A stretch of 64,000 bases of DNA from contig NZ_KQ954252.1 in assembly GCF_001519065.1 (NCBI RefSeq), forward strand, positions 124,001-188,000. Direction: 5' to 3'. Position numbers and translations under genes: made by a program. The notes under the pieces were generated by a model, which searched no databases, was not told where the DNA came from, and was given only the letters and a program-made list of their open reading frames with translations. The number at the start of each line of letters is the position of its first letter. Position 1 is the stretch's first letter. Of the stretch, positions 12,809-19,569 are shown one piece after another. Origin of the DNA: Novosphingobium sp. FSW06-99 (lineage in GTDB: Bacteria; Pseudomonadota; Alphaproteobacteria; Sphingomonadales; Sphingomonadaceae).

Positions 12809-14674
12809 ATGAGCGTGCTGAATTTGCTAACACCGCGCCTGGGATTGTATGAAGCGTGGGAGCTGTTTTTTACCCTCGGCGCAATCGTGCTGGCGTTTGT
12901 CCTGCAGCGTTTCAAGAGCGGCGTGTTTCAGCACCTTGATGGCGCATTTGCGGCCTTCGAGAATCGCTGTTCGGCGATCGCCGCGCGCCCCTGGCTCAGC
13001 ATTGTCATCATCGCGGTTGCCTCGATCGGGTTGCGGCTGGCTATCGCGCCCTGGCTGGGCACGCCCGACCCGGTTATTGCCGATGAATTCAGCCTGATCT
13101 TTCAGGCCGATACGATGTTCCATGGGCACCTTGCCAATCCGGGCACCGTCACGCCCAATTTCGAAGCGGTCTATGTGCTGCTTCGGCCCACGTTCTCCTC
13201 GATGTATCCTGTGTTGCGTTCGTTTCCCCTGCTGGTCGGCCTGCTGTTGGGCGTTGGCGTGTGGGGTGGTGTGCTGCTGTCGGTTTGTGCGCTGGCGATC
13301 GCGGTGCACTGGATGGTGCGGCAATGGGTGAATGACCGGGTTGCCCTGCTCGTGGCCGCGATCGTGATCCTGCGCTTTGGTCTGTTCAGCCTGTGGGTCA
13401 ATTCCTATTTCGGCAGTGCGTTCACCGGTCTTGGCGGGGTGTTGCTGCTTGGCGGTTATCGTTCGGTCACGACGCGCTCGGCCTTGTCGGGGGGGATCGC
13501 GATCGGGGTCGGGGTGTTGATCCTGATGACCACCCGTCCTTATGAGGCGCTCTTCTTTGCTGCACCGATCCTGCTGGCGCTGGGCATCCATTTCGTGGTT
13601 GCGTCGGGCCCGGTGCGCAAGGCGCTGGTGGCGCCTGCGCTTGCCGCAGTGGTGTTCGTCGGCCTCGGGCTTGGCATCACGCTCGCCTCGAATAGTGCTG
13701 TCACGCATGACGCAAAGGTGTTCCCCTATAACCTCTATCGCCAGACCAGTTCGCTGGCGCCGGCGTGGTTGATCAACAAGCCGGTGCCGATCGTGGGGCC
13801 GGGGCCGCGTTACGCCATTGCGCAGCATTTTCTCGACTATGAATACAGGAACTACCACGATAACCGCCAGCGCCTGCTGTCATCGGAAGCGTACAGGTTT
13901 CGCAATTACTGGAATTTCTATGTCGGCTTTGCGCTGACGATCCCGTTCCTGCTGGGTCTGGTCGCACTTCGTCGGAACTATGCCGTGCTGGCCTCGATCG
14001 TCGTGCTGGGGCTGGCTCTTTCGATCGAGACCTGGACCTTTTCGCACTATGCTGCGCCAGGCTTCGGTTTCTTCATGCTGGCAATCGCGGCAGGTTTTGA
14101 CGCGATGCGCAAGCGTCCCGCACAAAGCTGGGTGCCCTGGACCTGGTTGAGCCGAACACTTGTGCTCGCGCTTGTGGTGGGCAGCGTCATCCCGTTGCAA
14201 TCCACATTTGCGGGCAAACCGGATTTCGTGCCGTGGGCCGACAATGGCTTCAGCACGCCGTGTTGCTGGTTGCGTCCGCGTTCCGCGCCGAACGAATTGC
14301 GCAGGGTGGTTGAACAGACGCCCGGACGCAATATCGTTCTCGTCGATACGAGCGTGCAGGCGCCCTATGCCATCCTGATTTCGAACGAAGCGGATCTGGA
14401 GAACGCCCGCACCCTGCTGGTCAACCGTGATCCGCAATATGACCAGGAAACGATCGCGCGCTATCCCGGCAGGCGGATCTGGACGCTGACCTGGCAACCG
14501 GGAGATGGGGCTGCGTGCCTCACACCCCGCAAATCCACCGATCTGGTGCCCGTGTTGCCGACGTGGGTGCGGGGGTCGGCGGCTGCGTGCCCGGGCGGGC
14601 TCCTGCGTCCACTGACCGCCTTTCAGGTGTCGAGCGACACGATGCGACAAGGCCCGGTTGATCGTCATAAATAA
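12809..14674 (+). CDS. Polytopic membrane protein, GT-C-like
   Basis: A 621-residue protein with about eleven hydrophobic segments up to residue ~460, followed by a soluble C-terminal domain containing several cysteines. The first predicted periplasmic loop has an acidic pair, Asp92-Glu93 (ADEFSLIFQAD), where GT-C glycosyltransferases place their catalytic or metal-binding acid. That, the topology and the neighbours suggest a transferase using a polyprenyl-phosphate sugar on the periplasmic side. The family assignment is inference; I recognise no specific enzyme. A near-consensus promoter lies about 190 bases upstream. The next gene is a UbiA-family prenyltransferase that could help supply its donor. 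Confidence 0.72.
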   Translation: MSVLNLLTPRLGLYEAWELFFTLGAIVLAFVLQRFKSGVFQHLDGAFAAFENRCSAIAARPWLSIVIIAVASIGLRLAIAPWLGTPDPVIADEFSLIFQADTMFHGHLANPGTVTPNFEAVYVLLRPTFSSMYPVLRSFPLLVGLLLGVGVWGGVLLSVCALAIAVHWMVRQWVNDRVALLVAAIVILRFGLFSLWVNSYFGSAFTGLGGVLLLGGYRSVTTRSALSGGIAIGVGVLILMTTRPYEALFFAAPILLALGIHFVVASGPVRKALVAPALAAVVFVGLGLGITLASNSAVTHDAKVFPYNLYRQTSSLAPAWLINKPVPIVGPGPRYAIAQHFLDYEYRNYHDNRQRLLSSEAYRFRNYWNFYVGFALTIPFLLGLVALRRNYAVLASIVVLGLALSIETWTFSHYAAPGFGFFMLAIAAGFDAMRKRPAQSWVPWTWLSRTLVLALVVGSVIPLQSTFAGKPDFVPWADNGFSTPCCWLRPRSAPNELRRVVEQTPGRNIVLVDTSVQAPYAILISNEADLENARTLLVNRDPQYDQETIARYPGRRIWTLTWQPGDGAACLTPRKSTDLVPVLPTWVRGSAAACPGGLLRPLTAFQVSSDTMRQGPVDRHK

Positions 14675-14780
14675 TTAAATTTAGAGAATTATTCCTTCGG
14701 TTGAAGCGCATGAGGCACTCACTACGGTTGCTTGAACGCATCAACTGCCCAAATCCAACGTAGACTAGGCGGAAGATCCT

Positions 14781-15770
14781 GTGACCATGACCACCACAGC
14801 ACAAGGTGAGGCGGGCGTTCTTCGGAAACCTGCGCTGCAAGACTATCTGGCGATCATGCGGCTTGATCATGTCACCAAGCACGTGTTCGTGGTGCCAGGG
14901 ATTGTTCTGGCCTATTTGCTGCGGCACCATTTCGTCACGCTGACGCCGTGGCCGTTCGTCGCAGGCGCGATCGTTGCGGTGTGCATCGCCTCGGCGAACT
15001 ATGTCATCAACGAATTTCTCGATCGCGAATTCGATGCACTGCATCCGACCAAATCGTTGCGTACGGCGGTCAAGGTCGAACTGTCGGGCGTCGTTGTGTG
15101 GTTGCTGTGGCTGGCGCTGGTCGTGATCGGCTTTGTGGTGGCCTGGACGGCCAGTGTGACCATGCTGGTGATCGCGGTGGGGTTTGCTGCGCAGGGTATT
15201 TTCTACAATGTCAAACCGCTGCGCACCAAGGATCACGCCTATCTCGACGTGCTGTCGGAATCGGTCAACAACCCGTTCCGCCTGATGATCGGCTGGGCGA
15301 TGGTCGATCCGTCGACGTTGCCTCCGGCGAGTATCCTGCTGGGCTATTGGCTGGGCGGGGCGTTCCTGATGGGGGCCAAGCGTCTGTCGGAATACCGCGA
15401 AATCGTCGCCAACCACGGACGCGATCTGCTGGTCCGCTATCGCGCCAGCTTTGGCGGGTATGACGAATACAGCCTGACCGCATCGTGCCTGGTCTATGCG
15501 GCGCTCAGCGGGATGGCGCTGGCCATTTTCATGGTCAAATACCGCATCGAATATATTATCACGCTGGTGCCGATCGCACTGCTGTTCGGGAAGTACATGT
15601 CGCTGGCGATGCGCCCGGCCTCGACCGCGCAAAAGCCGGAAAAGCTGTTCAACGAACATGGCCTGATGGCGCTGGTGCTGATCGTGGTCGTGACGTTTGT
15701 GGTCGCCACGGTGGTGAACATGCCGTTTTTGCAGACGCTTACCGCGCAGCACTTCATCTCGCTGCAATAA
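14781..15770 (+). CDS. UbiA-family prenyltransferase, decaprenyl-phosphate phosphoribosyltransferase-like
   Basis: A 329-residue membrane protein with about eight or nine helices. The aspartate-rich motif NEFLDREFDALHPTK (residues 77-91) keeps the N-x3-D-x3-D of UbiA enzymes. It adds the HPTK found in the mycobacterial DPPR-synthase branch (Rv3806c type), which transfers phosphoribose from PRPP to decaprenyl phosphate. A quinone or haem prenyltransferase would not usually show HPTK. The canonical ND is NE here. The second motif region reads DVLSESVNNPFRLMIGW. The GTG at 14781 has GGAAG at good spacing; an ATG at 14787 is an alternative. A HAD phosphatase and GtrA follow with a 2-base gap and an overlap, as expected for a polyprenyl-phosphate-pentose cassette. 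Confidence 0.8.
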   Translation: MTMTTTAQGEAGVLRKPALQDYLAIMRLDHVTKHVFVVPGIVLAYLLRHHFVTLTPWPFVAGAIVAVCIASANYVINEFLDREFDALHPTKSLRTAVKVELSGVVVWLLWLALVVIGFVVAWTASVTMLVIAVGFAAQGIFYNVKPLRTKDHAYLDVLSESVNNPFRLMIGWAMVDPSTLPPASILLGYWLGGAFLMGAKRLSEYREIVANHGRDLLVRYRASFGGYDEYSLTASCLVYAALSGMALAIFMVKYRIEYIITLVPIALLFGKYMSLAMRPASTAQKPEKLFNEHGLMALVLIVVVTFVVATVVNMPFLQTLTAQHFISLQ

Positions 15771-15772
15771 CC

Positions 15773-16462
15773 ATGGATATCGCGTGGGATTCCTTCCGGC
15801 TGGCGGTGTTCGATGTTGATGGCACGCTGTATGATCAGCGGCGCCTGCGGCTGACGATGGCCGCGCAGCTCGGGCTGCATTGCGCGCGCGCGCTCAATCT
15901 GCGCACCGCGCATGTGCTCAAGCGCTATCGGCGGCGGCGCGAACATCTTGCCGATGCCGAAACGGTCGATTTCGAACGCGTGCTTGAAGACGAACTGGTG
16001 GCGATCCATGGCGGCGGCGGCGGACCGTTGCGCGCGCTGGTGACCGACTGGATGGAAGTCCGCCCGTTGCCCTATCTTGCCGCCGCCCGCAGGCCCGGCG
16101 TGGTCGATCTGTTCGACCGTTTGCGCCGTTCGGGCAAGATCATCGGCGTGCTGTCGGACTATCCCGCCCGCGACAAGCTTGCCGCGCTTGGTCTTGATGC
16201 CGATGTGGTGGTCAGCGCCACCGATGCCGAAGTCAATGTGATGAAGCCCCATCCCGCCGGATTGCAGCGCGTGATGGCGCTGGCCGGGGTATCGCCCGAT
16301 GAAACGGTGATGATCGGTGACCGCGCCGAGCGCGATGGCGAGGCCGGGCGGCGGGCCGGCGTCAGAACGCTGGTGCTGGGCGGTGACACCACCGCGCATT
16401 GGACCGGGTTCACCGATTTCCGCCAAGTCTGGACGGCTGCACCATCGGCTGGCGCGGCGTGA
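15773..16462 (+). CDS. HAD-superfamily phosphatase
   Basis: A 229-residue soluble hydrolase. Motif I DVDGT supplies the nucleophile Asp14 and acid/base Asp16. Motif II is the Ser in GVLSDYP, motif III the Lys in VMKPHP, and motif IV is IGDRAERDG. A helical cap lies between motifs I and II. The substrate is not evident from sequence. Two bases separate it from the UbiA gene, and it overlaps gtrA by GTGA, so removal of the 5-phosphate from polyprenyl-phosphoryl phosphoribose is a reasonable inference. Confidence 0.88.
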   Translation: MDIAWDSFRLAVFDVDGTLYDQRRLRLTMAAQLGLHCARALNLRTAHVLKRYRRRREHLADAETVDFERVLEDELVAIHGGGGGPLRALVTDWMEVRPLPYLAAARRPGVVDLFDRLRRSGKIIGVLSDYPARDKLAALGLDADVVVSATDAEVNVMKPHPAGLQRVMALAGVSPDETVMIGDRAERDGEAGRRAGVRTLVLGGDTTAHWTGFTDFRQVWTAAPSAGAA

Positions 16463-16836
16463 AGGACACGCTGCTACGCGTCGGGCGCTATGGCTTGACC
16501 GGGGGCGCTGCGGCGGTCGTCGATCTGGGCGTGTTTGCGCTGCTGTGCCCGGCGCTGTTGCCGGTGGGTCCGGCTGCGACGGTCAGTTTTCTGGCCGCCG
16601 TGGGGGTCAACTACACGTTGACCAGCCGATATGTCTTCGCCAACAGCCTCAATCGAAAACGCTTTTACCGGTTCTTCGTGTTTGCGGTGCTGGGGCTGCT
16701 GATCAATGTCAGCGCGACCGTGGCGGTCGCCCGGCTGTTGCCGGTCAAGCCCGTCGTCGCAAAGTTCTGCGGTATTGGTATCGCGTTCTTTTTCAATTAC
16801 CTGTTCAACGCAAAATTCGTTTTCGATCGCGACTAG
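16459..16836 (+). CDS. GtrA-family membrane protein
   Basis: A 125-residue protein with four hydrophobic helices and the GtrA pattern: FGxxG-like start RVGRYGLTGG, NYTLTSRYVF after helix 2, and NYLFNAKFVF at the C-terminus. GtrA proteins are proposed flippases or partners for polyprenyl-linked sugars; the mycobacterial homologue Rv3789 works with the decaprenyl-phosphoryl-arabinose pathway. Translation starts at the GTG at 16459, which overlaps the HAD stop codon (GTGA), indicating coupling. It ends the UbiA-HAD-GtrA operon. Confidence 0.9.
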   Translation: MKDTLLRVGRYGLTGGAAAVVDLGVFALLCPALLPVGPAATVSFLAAVGVNYTLTSRYVFANSLNRKRFYRFFVFAVLGLLINVSATVAVARLLPVKPVVAKFCGIGIAFFFNYLFNAKFVFDRD

Positions 16837-16989
16837 GCGGCGTGATGCCGGCAATCCGGGGCGCATGATGCTCTGGCAGTCTTTGGCATCGTCTATTGCA
16901 AAAAGGCTGGTGCCCACTTTTGTTTGGCATAAGCTAACGGGCAGCGCCCGCGGTTCGTTGGCGGACTGCATTGGGGGAGCCGATTGCCG

Positions 16990-19569
16990 ATGCGCCTGAT
17001 CATCGCCTTTCTCGCCGCGCTGCTGTTGATGGGGCCTGCGCTTGCGCGAGCGGACGCGCCGGGCGGAACGCCATGCACCACTGCCAGGGGAGACGGTTGC
17101 TCCGCAGACGGGTCGGTGCAGGTGCCGACATTCTTTCGCGGCTATGCCACGCAAGGATCGGCTGGCGTGTCACGCCCGGCCGGCACGAGCACCAACCCGT
17201 GGCACTTGTCGTTCAAGACCACGACCAGCGGGCAATCCCCGGTCTATCCCGCGCGCCCGTCGTGGAACGTGGCCGGGGTCGACTATGCGGTCGGCATTCC
17301 GCGCGGGCAGGCGCCCACGTTGGGCAATCTGCACCCGTCATACCTCAAAGACCCGGCGCAGATCGCGACTGATCCACTGGTCAACCCACGTCGACAGGGC
17401 GAAAATTGCCAGTTCTATGCCTCTAACACGGCAGTGCCGCGCGGGGTCGCGGCGGGCACGACGGCCACACCCTTTCCCTTTGCGCTGGGTGGTGCGGGTA
17501 TCTATTGCAGCAACACCACCGGATCGGCCAATTCGCTGATCTTTGACGGGTACAATTTCGCCTGGAACAGCACCACCGGATCTGGCTGCGTGCCGGTCTT
17601 TCTGGCAGACAAGCCGTGGGGCGCCGGCGCGGCGAGCACCGGGGCGACCACTGCCAATGTCATCATGCGCAACTCGCTGTTCGTCGAGGGCCCCAATTGC
17701 AACATCTGGGGCGGCGTCTACCAGGGGCCCGGAACCGCGCAGGCCGGCCCTGAAAATGCCGCCGCGGTCTATGGCGTGGCTTTTGCCAACGGCGCCACGC
17801 TCAACAGCTTTTCGTTCGTCAACAACACCGTCTATGGCTGCGGCGGCGATGCGCTGGCCGGCGCGCTGGAAACCGCGCTGTGCAGTGCCAGCTTCAATGC
17901 CACCCACTACGCAGCGGGTGGCATAGCGAATTGGGTAACCGGCGCAAAAGTCGGTGTCGCGCCGCTGAACGGTCATTTCCTGGGCATTTCCGGTGGCACC
18001 GCATGGATCGAATTCAACGCCTTCCTGCATATGCCGGGGCGCTTGTTCGACATGGGCAATGTCAATGTCGGCAACCACACCATCGTCGTCGCCAACAACT
18101 ATATCGAGGGCATGCTCTACAGGCAGGAGCCGGGCGTGTTGTTCAACAGCATCGTCAACAGTGGCGGAACGCAGGAAACCATCACCACCAATGCCCCGCA
18201 TGGCGTGCCGGTGGGTAGTCACGTCTCGCTGGTGGTGTCGGGCAATGGCGCACAGGGCTTTCCGGGCGGCTGGGGCGGCACGTGGACGTTGCAGGCCACC
18301 GATGCGACCCATCTCGTGCTCGACAGCCCGATCAACCATGGCGACTGGACCTGGGGCGGTTCGGGCAATTACGGCTGGGTCTACAGCAATTTCGGCCATG
18401 GCGAATTGTGGAACACCGCCGCCACCACCGGTGGCGCCACGTTCACCGGCACGATCAGCGGCACCACGCTGACGGTGTCCGGCCTGTCGGGCACGCTGAC
18501 GGCGGGGCAATATGTCACCGCCACCGGTGCTGCCGATGGCGTGATCACCGGCACCATCAGCGGCAGCACGCTGACCGTCAACAGCGTCACCTCGGGCACG
18601 CTCGCGGCGGGTCAACTGGTGGGCGGTTCCGGCCTGGGCATCCCCGCCGCCGTGACCATCGTGTCGGGCGGCGGATCGACCTGGACGCTCAGCCAGTCGG
18701 TCGGCAACATCGGCCCCGCTGTGATCAACACCTATGATGCCATTCCCTCGCCCACTTATATCGTCGGCGGTTCAGGCAACACATGGACGCTCAACCGGGC
18801 GCTGGGCAAGATCGGCCCCACCCGGATGGCCGCGCCTTATTACACCCCCGGTGTGCGGGGGGGCATCACCACCTACAAAGTGAGCTATAACACCTATCTG
18901 CAAACCCCGTCGGCATGGGGATATGGCGGCACCGCGATCCTGTGGGCGCAGACCAACAGCAACCTGATGGGGGTGCCGCTGGGCACACTGACGGGATCAG
19001 TCGATCACAATGTGTTGGTGTCGGACCTGCAGAACAACGCGCGGCACGTGCAGAATTCCTATGGCGTGGCGTTTCAGGCGACCAGGCTGGCGGGTTTTGC
19101 GGTTGCCGACAACTATTTCGATCCCACCGGGCAATATTATTGCTGGATCGGCTACACGCTCGATTCCGGCAACGGCCCCACCCTCAGCGGCAATGTCAAC
19201 ATGCTGAACCCGTCTGACCCGTATGCCAACATGATGGATAGCTATGCCATCGTTCCCTATGTTTCGGGCACGGGCGCCAACAGCCAGGGCGAAAACGGGC
19301 TGGCCTACAACACCAGGACCGGTGTGCTGACCATTACGCTGGCCGCGCCCGCCCCATTTGGCGCCGGGCAGCGCTTTTTCATCCGCAATGGCGCGGTAAA
19401 TGCCGGGCCCAACTATCTGGCCGGCCCGATGACCGCCTCCGGCGTATCGGGCGCGACTGTCACCGTGAACCTTGCCCCCGGCTTTACCGGGGTGCCGATC
19501 AGCGTCACAGCGGGCGTCACGCTGATCGACAGCGCCGGGCATCCGCAGGCCTGTTACGGGCACAATTGA
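16990..19569 (+). CDS. Large secreted repeat-containing protein, possible beta-helix
   Basis: An 859-residue protein that I cannot assign to a family. A clear Sec signal peptide MRLIIAFLAALLLMGPALARADA opens it. The mature part is rich in Gly, Asn, Thr and Ser, with short beta-like segments such as NNTVYG, NNYIEG and DNYFDP. Such Asn ladders are common in right-handed parallel beta-helices of polysaccharide lyases and surface proteins. Two 34-residue repeats lie at residues 485-552. The ATG at 16990 was chosen; a TTG at 16984 is closer to the GGGGGAG site. Its position opposite a GH16 enzyme suggests a role in EPS binding or trimming, by inference only. Confidence 0.78.
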   Translation: MRLIIAFLAALLLMGPALARADAPGGTPCTTARGDGCSADGSVQVPTFFRGYATQGSAGVSRPAGTSTNPWHLSFKTTTSGQSPVYPARPSWNVAGVDYAVGIPRGQAPTLGNLHPSYLKDPAQIATDPLVNPRRQGENCQFYASNTAVPRGVAAGTTATPFPFALGGAGIYCSNTTGSANSLIFDGYNFAWNSTTGSGCVPVFLADKPWGAGAASTGATTANVIMRNSLFVEGPNCNIWGGVYQGPGTAQAGPENAAAVYGVAFANGATLNSFSFVNNTVYGCGGDALAGALETALCSASFNATHYAAGGIANWVTGAKVGVAPLNGHFLGISGGTAWIEFNAFLHMPGRLFDMGNVNVGNHTIVVANNYIEGMLYRQEPGVLFNSIVNSGGTQETITTNAPHGVPVGSHVSLVVSGNGAQGFPGGWGGTWTLQATDATHLVLDSPINHGDWTWGGSGNYGWVYSNFGHGELWNTAATTGGATFTGTISGTTLTVSGLSGTLTAGQYVTATGAADGVITGTISGSTLTVNSVTSGTLAAGQLVGGSGLGIPAAVTIVSGGGSTWTLSQSVGNIGPAVINTYDAIPSPTYIVGGSGNTWTLNRALGKIGPTRMAAPYYTPGVRGGITTYKVSYNTYLQTPSAWGYGGTAILWAQTNSNLMGVPLGTLTGSVDHNVLVSDLQNNARHVQNSYGVAFQATRLAGFAVADNYFDPTGQYYCWIGYTLDSGNGPTLSGNVNMLNPSDPYANMMDSYAIVPYVSGTGANSQGENGLAYNTRTGVLTITLAAPAPFGAGQRFFIRNGAVNAGPNYLAGPMTASGVSGATVTVNLAPGFTGVPISVTAGVTLIDSAGHPQACYGHN
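18442..18645 (+). repeat. Two tandem 102-bp (34-residue) coding repeats
   Basis: Units begin at 18442 and 18544. Each encodes a [FI]TGTISG[TS]TLTV core followed by SGTL[TA]AGQ. The same kind of unit occurs in phage tail-fibre and surface proteins, as far as I recall. Confidence 0.8.

What the first reader, a model, noticed from the sequence alone, without database searches (positions are those of the whole stretch)
12809..16836. Candidate polyprenyl-phosphate-pentose pathway embedded in an EPS locus
A UbiA protein with HPTK after its Asp-rich motif (DPPR-synthase type), a HAD phosphatase, a GtrA protein and, just upstream, a GT-C-like membrane protein with an Asp-Glu pair in its first loop lie together. 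UbiA-HAD-GtrA are joined by a 2-base gap and a GTGA overlap. In mycobacteria, Rv3806c, a phosphatase, Rv3789 (GtrA) and GT-C arabinosyltransferases make and use decaprenyl-phosphoryl-arabinose. This looks like a compact analogue that could place ribose or arabinose on the EPS or a protein. No DprE1/DprE2 epimerase gene is in the window, so the product could remain the ribo form.
Basis: partly seen in the sequence, partly recalled or inferred. Interest (0 to 1): 0.78.

Follow-up and report, generated by a model that had tools for sequence, protein, structure and literature searches.

The report
Likely ribose-adding cassette in exopolysaccharide locus
Four neighbouring genes in a bacterial exopolysaccharide locus, one of them carrying most of the ribose-phosphate-binding residues of a known mycobacterial enzyme, likely load ribose onto a membrane lipid, would flip it outward and are predicted to attach it to a surface sugar chain; relatives of three of the genes also sit together on plasmids of rhizobia.

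The parts
12809..14674 (+). GT-C-fold membrane protein, 621 aa; D92-E93 in the first outer loop; predicted pentofuranosyltransferase
14781..15770 (+). UbiA-superfamily protein of the DPPR-synthase type: predicted polyprenyl-phosphate 5-phosphoribosyltransferase (start may be ATG 14787)
15000..15062 (+). Codons for the active-site stretch Y74 to R94 (Y, N77, E78, D81, D85, H88, P89, T90, K91, R94)
   Evidence: register with Rv3806c Y70 to R90 without a gap
15773..16462 (+). HAD-IA hydrolase, predicted 5'-phosphatase of polyprenyl-phosphate-ribose-5-phosphate
   Evidence: Pfam PF00702 73.1 bits; HAD motifs intact by reading (motifs recalled); a HAD of the UbiA-fused kind stands in its place in L147
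16459..16836 (+). GtrA-family membrane protein, predicted flippase or helper for the lipid-linked pentose
   Evidence: PF04138 69.2 bits
9973..11238 (+). nucleotide-sugar dehydrogenase (EPS context)
   Evidence: TIGR03026 375.5 bits
11242..12507 (+). GT4 glycosyltransferase (EPS context)
   Evidence: PF13692 80.4 bits
24440..31320 (+). EPS export and assembly block: Poly_export (Wza-like), Wzz/kinase, WecG/TagA GT, GT4, Wzx-like flippase
   Evidence: Pfam

Best explanation
The UbiA protein has nine of the ten PRPP- or Mg-binding residues of mycobacterial DPPR synthase that could be aligned, so the cassette likely moves phosphoribose from PRPP to a polyprenyl phosphate, is predicted to remove the 5'-phosphate with the HAD enzyme, would flip the polyprenyl-phosphate-ribofuranose with GtrA, and would transfer ribofuranose to an outer glycan with the GT-C protein. 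Shown here: gene order, residue conservation, predicted folds, linkage in relatives, and no DprE1 at the curated cut-off in the genome. Inferred: every catalytic step; the lipid (undecaprenyl phosphate is expected in a Gram-negative); the sugar left as D-ribofuranose because no epimerase was found; the alpha linkage (by analogy with GT136); and the EPS as acceptor (by location only). The GT-C partner differs between relatives, as in gtr glucosylation systems, so the acceptor is expected to differ between strains.
Against: UbiA lies on a long branch outside the DPPR synthases (3.03 changes per column), scores 54.3 against the curated 234 bits, has Glu for the Asp74 equivalent, Gly for Gln135, and no reliable Lys208 equivalent. 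The tree program warns of long branches meeting. The GT-C family is often elsewhere: 0 of 36 genome-contig loci with a GT-C relative had UbiA in the DNA held (up to 8 kb each side), including a 44% identical one in Rhodoblastus; 3 of 18 other UbiA-bearing genomes have a GT-C relative, one of them weak. The GT-C gene ends 106 bases before the UbiA ORF and may be transcribed apart. The window-type HAD shows no significant similarity to the UbiA-fused HADs (phmmer E 0.055 at best). No sugar, lipid or enzyme data for this organism were seen. DprE2 and ORF13-like epimerases were not searched for.
Confidence: 0.62

Rival explanations
1. Same donor pathway, but the GT-C enzyme glycosylates a protein (for example a pilin or the protein encoded at 16984) rather than the EPS.
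For: A PPPRS is proposed to make the donor for pilin arabinosylation in P. aeruginosa (PMC11127046); its GT-C enzyme TfpW is recalled, with papers seen only in the listing. A large secreted-looking protein follows at 16984-19569.
Against: The cassette lies among EPS genes; no pilin family was hit among the window proteins scanned with Pfam (the whole window was not scanned).
Confidence: 0.2
2. Same enzymes, but an epimerase elsewhere in the genome converts the donor to another pentofuranose (D-arabinofuranose or xylofuranose) before transfer.
For: Epimerases decide the sugar in published systems (PMC11127046); five relatives carry a GMC plus SDR pair in the cassette. A lactone-oxidase-like flavoprotein is in the genome.
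Against: DprE1 model best 51.9 bits against a cut-off of 500; the ALO protein scores 500 bits to TIGR01679 and 50.9 to DprE1; the GMC of the relatives has only a 25.8-bit partial match. DprE2 and ORF13-like SDRs not tested.
Confidence: 0.2
3. UbiA-HAD-GtrA make and flip the lipid-linked ribose, but the true transferase is another gene and the 12809 protein belongs to a different step.
For: GT-C relatives found in named genomes occur without UbiA nearby; the locus of the best family homologue, L022, has no such membrane protein next to it.
Against: GT-C fold, position, and relatives of this very family beside or near UbiA in L026 and L155.
Confidence: 0.2
4. The UbiA protein is an ordinary prenyltransferase (quinone, haem, chlorophyll or lipid) and the neighbours are coincidental.
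For: Pfam family UbiA only; curated DPPR-synthase cut-off not reached.
Against: PRPP-specific residues, fold ranking and tree; the genome has three other UbiA proteins; repeated linkage to HAD and GtrA.
Confidence: 0.06

Closest known systems
Three-component pentofuranose system of Citrobacter youngae O1/O2 (ORF15 PPPRS-PRP, ORF14 MATE, ORF12 GT136; Kelly et al. 2024, PMC11127046)
   Same: UbiA-fold phosphoribosyltransferase, HAD phosphatase, small membrane flippase candidate and GT-C enzyme beside polysaccharide genes
   Different: Here the HAD is a separate gene not detectably related to UbiA-fused HADs, the flippase candidate is GtrA, the GT-C has no Pfam family and its relation to GT136 could not be tested, and the UbiA is a separate deep lineage
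Mycobacterial DPA pathway (Rv3806c, Rv3807c, DprE1/DprE2, Rv3789, Emb/Aft GT-C)
   Same: PRPP ligands of Rv3806c, GT-C fold, and a GtrA-type partner (Rv3789 is GtrA-family by recall and called SMR-family in PMC11127046)
   Different: No DprE1 at the cut-off in the genome; a HAD instead of the unrelated phosphatase; one GT-C in the cassette
Pseudomonas pilin arabinosylation (PPPRS as described in PMC11127046; GT-C TfpW recalled)
   Same: Gram-negative PPPRS
   Different: Pilin target and arabinose product; here EPS context and no DprE1
gtrA/gtrB/gtr(type) O-antigen glucosylation (as described in PMC11127046)
   Same: GtrA plus exchangeable GT-C
   Different: The donor maker is a UbiA phosphoribosyltransferase plus HAD, not GtrB

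Membership tests
Decaprenyl-phosphate phosphoribosyltransferase (NCBIfam PRK12324 models) | Score over the curated cut-off | tested here: not met
   54.3 bits against 234
Decaprenyl-phosphate phosphoribosyltransferase (NCBIfam PRK12324 models) | PRPP/Mg ligands of Rv3806c named in the passages seen | tested here: met
   R22, K28, Y70, N73, D77, K87, R90, Y138, K143 identical; Q135 is Gly, a position that varies in DPPR synthases too; K208 not reliably alignable
Decaprenyl-phosphate phosphoribosyltransferase (NCBIfam PRK12324 models) | Fold of 8j8j | tested here: met
Decaprenyl-phosphate phosphoribosyltransferase (NCBIfam PRK12324 models) | Activity with PRPP and polyprenyl phosphate | not testable with these tools
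   needs a membrane assay
GT-C glycosyltransferase fold | Multi-helix membrane domain matching solved GT-C structures, acidic residue after the first core helix | tested here: met
CAZy GT136 | Sequence family of C. youngae ORF12 | not tested
   ORF12 sequence was not obtained; no Pfam family, no NCBIfam hit over a cut-off
Kelly three-component pentofuranose system | PPPRS, PRP phosphatase, flippase and GT-C encoded together | tested here: inconclusive
   All four kinds of gene are present, but the HAD is not detectably related to the UbiA-fused HADs of other genomes, the flippase candidate is GtrA not MATE, and function is untested
Arabinosylation (DPA) pathway | DprE1 oxidase in the genome | tested here: not met
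   best 51.9 bits against 500; 1 of 14 control genomes is over the cut-off (not named by the tool, presumably C. glutamicum)

The most novel reading that the evidence does not exclude
A plasmid-borne, plug-in pentofuranosylation module of Alphaproteobacteria: a new deep lineage of polyprenyl-phosphate phosphoribosyltransferases with its own HAD phosphatase, a constant donor-making core (UbiA-HAD) and exchangeable outer parts, namely several unrelated-looking GT-C transferases (at least two new families) and either GtrA (ribofuranose) or a GMC oxidoreductase plus SDR pair that replaces DprE1/DprE2 as a polyprenyl-phosphate-pentose epimerase.
Probability: 0.4. Interest if true: 0.68.

Novelty: new variant of a known kind. 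Interest (0 to 1): 0.52.

Why it matters
Alpha-ribofuranose side chains added outside the cell have a worked-out prototype in Citrobacter O antigens (PMC11127046). This extends the logic to an exopolysaccharide locus in what is probably the Sphingomonadaceae, and to rhizobial plasmids, including pRL10 of the model strain R. johnstonii 3841, where deletion and sugar analysis can be done. It gives a residue test that tells PRPP-using UbiA proteins from ordinary ones, which one source-hydroxybenzoate polyprenyltransferases. It suggests a second epimerase type besides DprE1/DprE2, and a 9-kb plasmid that carries a whole surface-glycan modifier.

Tried and rejected
Ordinary UbiA (quinone, haem, chlorophyll): rejected on residues, fold and tree. 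DprE1 candidate at C4:4955 (PF04030 162 bits): rejected, it scores 500 bits to TIGR01679 and 50.9 to DprE1. Sequence search of the GT-C against PDB: nothing significant, alone or as a profile. Profile comparison between three partner membrane families (window type, ~505-aa type, ~525-aa type): no similarity, so the GT-C nature of the ~505-aa type rests on helix count, position and an acidic motif only. Genome-contig scan with the GT-C alignment: 36 loci, none with UbiA. GT-C search of 385 class genomes: only the window's own. Viral contigs: 15 pattern matches, none a UbiA relative. GT-C on plasmids: no match. Literature: by title and abstract start, the listings showed nothing on a UbiA-HAD-GtrA cassette in sphingomonads or rhizobia, or on a GMC-type epimerase for this lipid (one search listed 20 of 32 papers, 10 of 265); PMC11127046 was read in parts 1-6 of 8 and PMC10994848 in passages. 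Azorhizobium noeC was considered from recall and not tested.

The chance figure printed (binomial) treats related loci as independent and the adjacent genes were picked by eye, so it is not used as a probability.

Full report
What is there. The four genes are at the stated coordinates with the stated junctions. Pfam names three of them: UbiA (62.3 bits), HAD (73.1 bits) and GtrA (69.2 bits); the 621-residue protein at 12809 has no Pfam family. Around them are EPS genes: two nucleotide-sugar dehydrogenases (4658 and 9973), GT2, GT4, two O-antigen-ligase/polymerase-like proteins (7113 and 22961, minus strand), an acyltransferase, a GH16 hydrolase, and an export block with Poly_export, Wzz-kinase, WecG-type GT, GT4 and a Wzx-like protein. 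Not all of the window was scanned.

Its place in the family. In a tree of 59 UbiA domains the window type (14 rows) and five distant class relatives form one clade (100/99) on a long branch, beside the DPPR synthases and HAD fusions. With 15 ordinary UbiA proteins as outgroup, DPPR synthases, fusions and window type stay together, 100/99, though the program warns of long branches meeting. So it looks like a working relative of DPPR synthase but is a separate lineage. It has many relatives in the protein database: 3115 of 7999 scored candidates matched; of the 120 listed, many are named 4-hydroxybenzoate polyprenyltransferase by one source.

Linkage in relatives. Window-type UbiA was matched in 17 of 298 family genomes at E 1e-5, of which 10, including the window's own, are strong, in 6 of 385 class genomes and in 7 of 396 order genomes, each count including the window's own; none of the 5 or 20 (listed) other genomes of the same genus has it. 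I read 15 loci in the family: the window, L022-L030 and L154-L158. HAD follows UbiA in 13 of 15 (no hit in L155; in L026 no full-length HAD frame is left). GtrA is present in 8 of 15. A membrane protein of 500-621 residues with 6-10 hydrophobic segments by a crude count stands in the same gene run, or 1.7 kb away in L155, in 14 of 15; in L028 only its end lies on the contig, and L022 has none next to it. In L022-L030 only 3 of 120 other mechanically chosen ORFs have 450-700 residues and 8 or more such segments. These partners are of several families: window type (L026 31%, L155 31%), a ~505-residue family without Pfam in the three members scanned (L023, L024, L025, L027), a ~525-residue family (L028, L029, L030, L156-L158) with the Pfam domain PMT_2 in L029 (50.4 bits, cut-off 26.1), and one downstream of GtrA in L154. 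Profiles of three of them show no similarity. The five distant class loci (L108-L112) have other surroundings; only L112 shows a GtrA match next to UbiA, and none a window-type HAD match.

Plasmids. Twenty-three plasmid records carry a UbiA relative, 18 of them Rhizobium; I read six. R. johnstonii 3841 pRL10, R. ruizarguesonis and R. etli have UbiA-HAD-GtrA with overlapping genes. R. ruizarguesonis has an intact 530-residue membrane protein upstream, of which only C-terminal remnants match in the other two. The 9,146-base Paracoccus aestuarii plasmid p9146 carries a ~505-type membrane protein, UbiA, HAD (across the record start, open in one frame) and GtrA, besides a mobV relaxase, a brnT/brnA pair and three other genes. 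A Sphingobium plasmid has UbiA-HAD without a GtrA match. Rhodobacter sp. CZR27 has no window-type HAD match in 15 kb; instead an 885-residue protein joins a HAD of the kind fused to UbiA in other genomes (147.9 bits to L018, 4.6 to the window HAD), a partial UbiA domain (52.4 bits) and a ~505-type membrane protein (290.0 bits), followed by window-type UbiA and GtrA. This looks like a natural replacement of one HAD by another of the pathway and ties the ~505-type membrane protein to it.

Results against. Of 36 genome-contig loci with a relative of the window's GT-C, mostly Acidobacteria at 25-33% identity, none has UbiA in the stretch held; the closest, in Rhodoblastus at 44%, has a small four-helix gene resembling SMR transporters nearby (by reading). 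Of 18 other UbiA-bearing genomes 3 have a GT-C relative, one of them weak, and of 385 class genomes only the window's own. So the window's GT-C family is not dedicated to this pathway, and its role is the least certain part. Indirectly in favour, four contig lengths besides the window's own (4194, 6589, 13409, 192582) occur in both hit lists (120 of 3115 UbiA hits were listed, all 50 GT-C hits).

Which sugar. DprE1 does not reach its cut-off: best match 51.9 bits against 500; 1 of 14 control genomes is over the cut-off, unnamed by the tool. An aldonolactone-oxidase-like protein is something else. The GMC oxidoreductase of the relatives has only a 25.8-bit partial match in the genome. Hence ribofuranose is the simplest prediction. 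DprE2 and ORF13-type SDR were not searched.

An alternative module. In L028, L029, L030, L156 and L158 the HAD is followed by a ~120-residue protein, a GMC oxidoreductase and an NAD-epimerase-family SDR (Pfam on L029; tblastn on the others). None of these five has a GtrA match in the stretch held, and none of the eight loci with GtrA has a match to this trio (L026 has a GMC oxidoreductase of another kind, and L155 a protein that begins like it). The five fall in two genus codes (g77 and g80), so this is not five independent cases; L157, also g77, has GtrA instead. An oxidase plus a reductase is what DprE1/DprE2 are, so this pair is a candidate epimerase of a new type; that is inference.

Known or new. 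Kelly et al. 2024 (PMC11127046, parts 1-6 of 8 read) established PPPRS-PRP and GT-C (GT136), with a predicted MATE flippase, for ribofuranose and xylofuranose side chains and reported candidate systems in many species. This locus fits that principle with different parts. I therefore call it a new variant of a known kind.

Noticed in passing
L029:5959-8804, L156:8543-11305, L158:3597-6389, also L028:3659-6391 and L030:11125-13966: UbiA-HAD operons continue with a ~120-aa protein, a GMC oxidoreductase and an SDR instead of GtrA: candidate new polyprenyl-phosphate-pentose epimerase.
   Followed up: partly
L147:4341-6998 (Rhodobacter sp. CZR27 plasmid): 885-aa protein joining a HAD of the UbiA-fused kind, a partial UbiA domain and a ~505-type membrane protein, directly before window-type UbiA and GtrA.
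   Followed up: partly
L146 (Paracoccus aestuarii plasmid p9146, 9146 bases): Small plasmid that carries the whole four-gene cassette, with a mobV relaxase and a brnT/brnA toxin-antitoxin pair.
   Followed up: partly
L143 and L145, just upstream of UbiA: In R. johnstonii 3841 pRL10 and R. etli only C-terminal remnants of the upstream membrane protein match, while UbiA-HAD-GtrA are annotated as whole genes.
   Followed up: partly
L148:9336-9779 (minus strand): In a Sphingobium plasmid UbiA-HAD has no GtrA match, but a small SMR-like membrane protein lies nearby beside a Wzc-like gene (by reading).
   Followed up: no
L022:7136-12468: The closest family homologue has UbiA-HAD-GtrA lying between what read as ribonucleotide reductase genes (by reading, not tested).
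   Followed up: no
L109:3795-5414 and L112:11565-13187: Loci of distant UbiA relatives share a ~540-aa protein beginning alike (AL.INPSY), reminiscent of radical-SAM enzymes (recall).
   Followed up: no
L165 and L168 (G808), L166 and L169 (G226): Two genomes carry two copies each of the window-type GT-C; one copy in each lies near UbiA.
   Followed up: no
window 16984-19569: 861-aa secreted-looking protein without a Pfam family directly after the cassette; it might be an acceptor or act on the polysaccharide.
   Followed up: no
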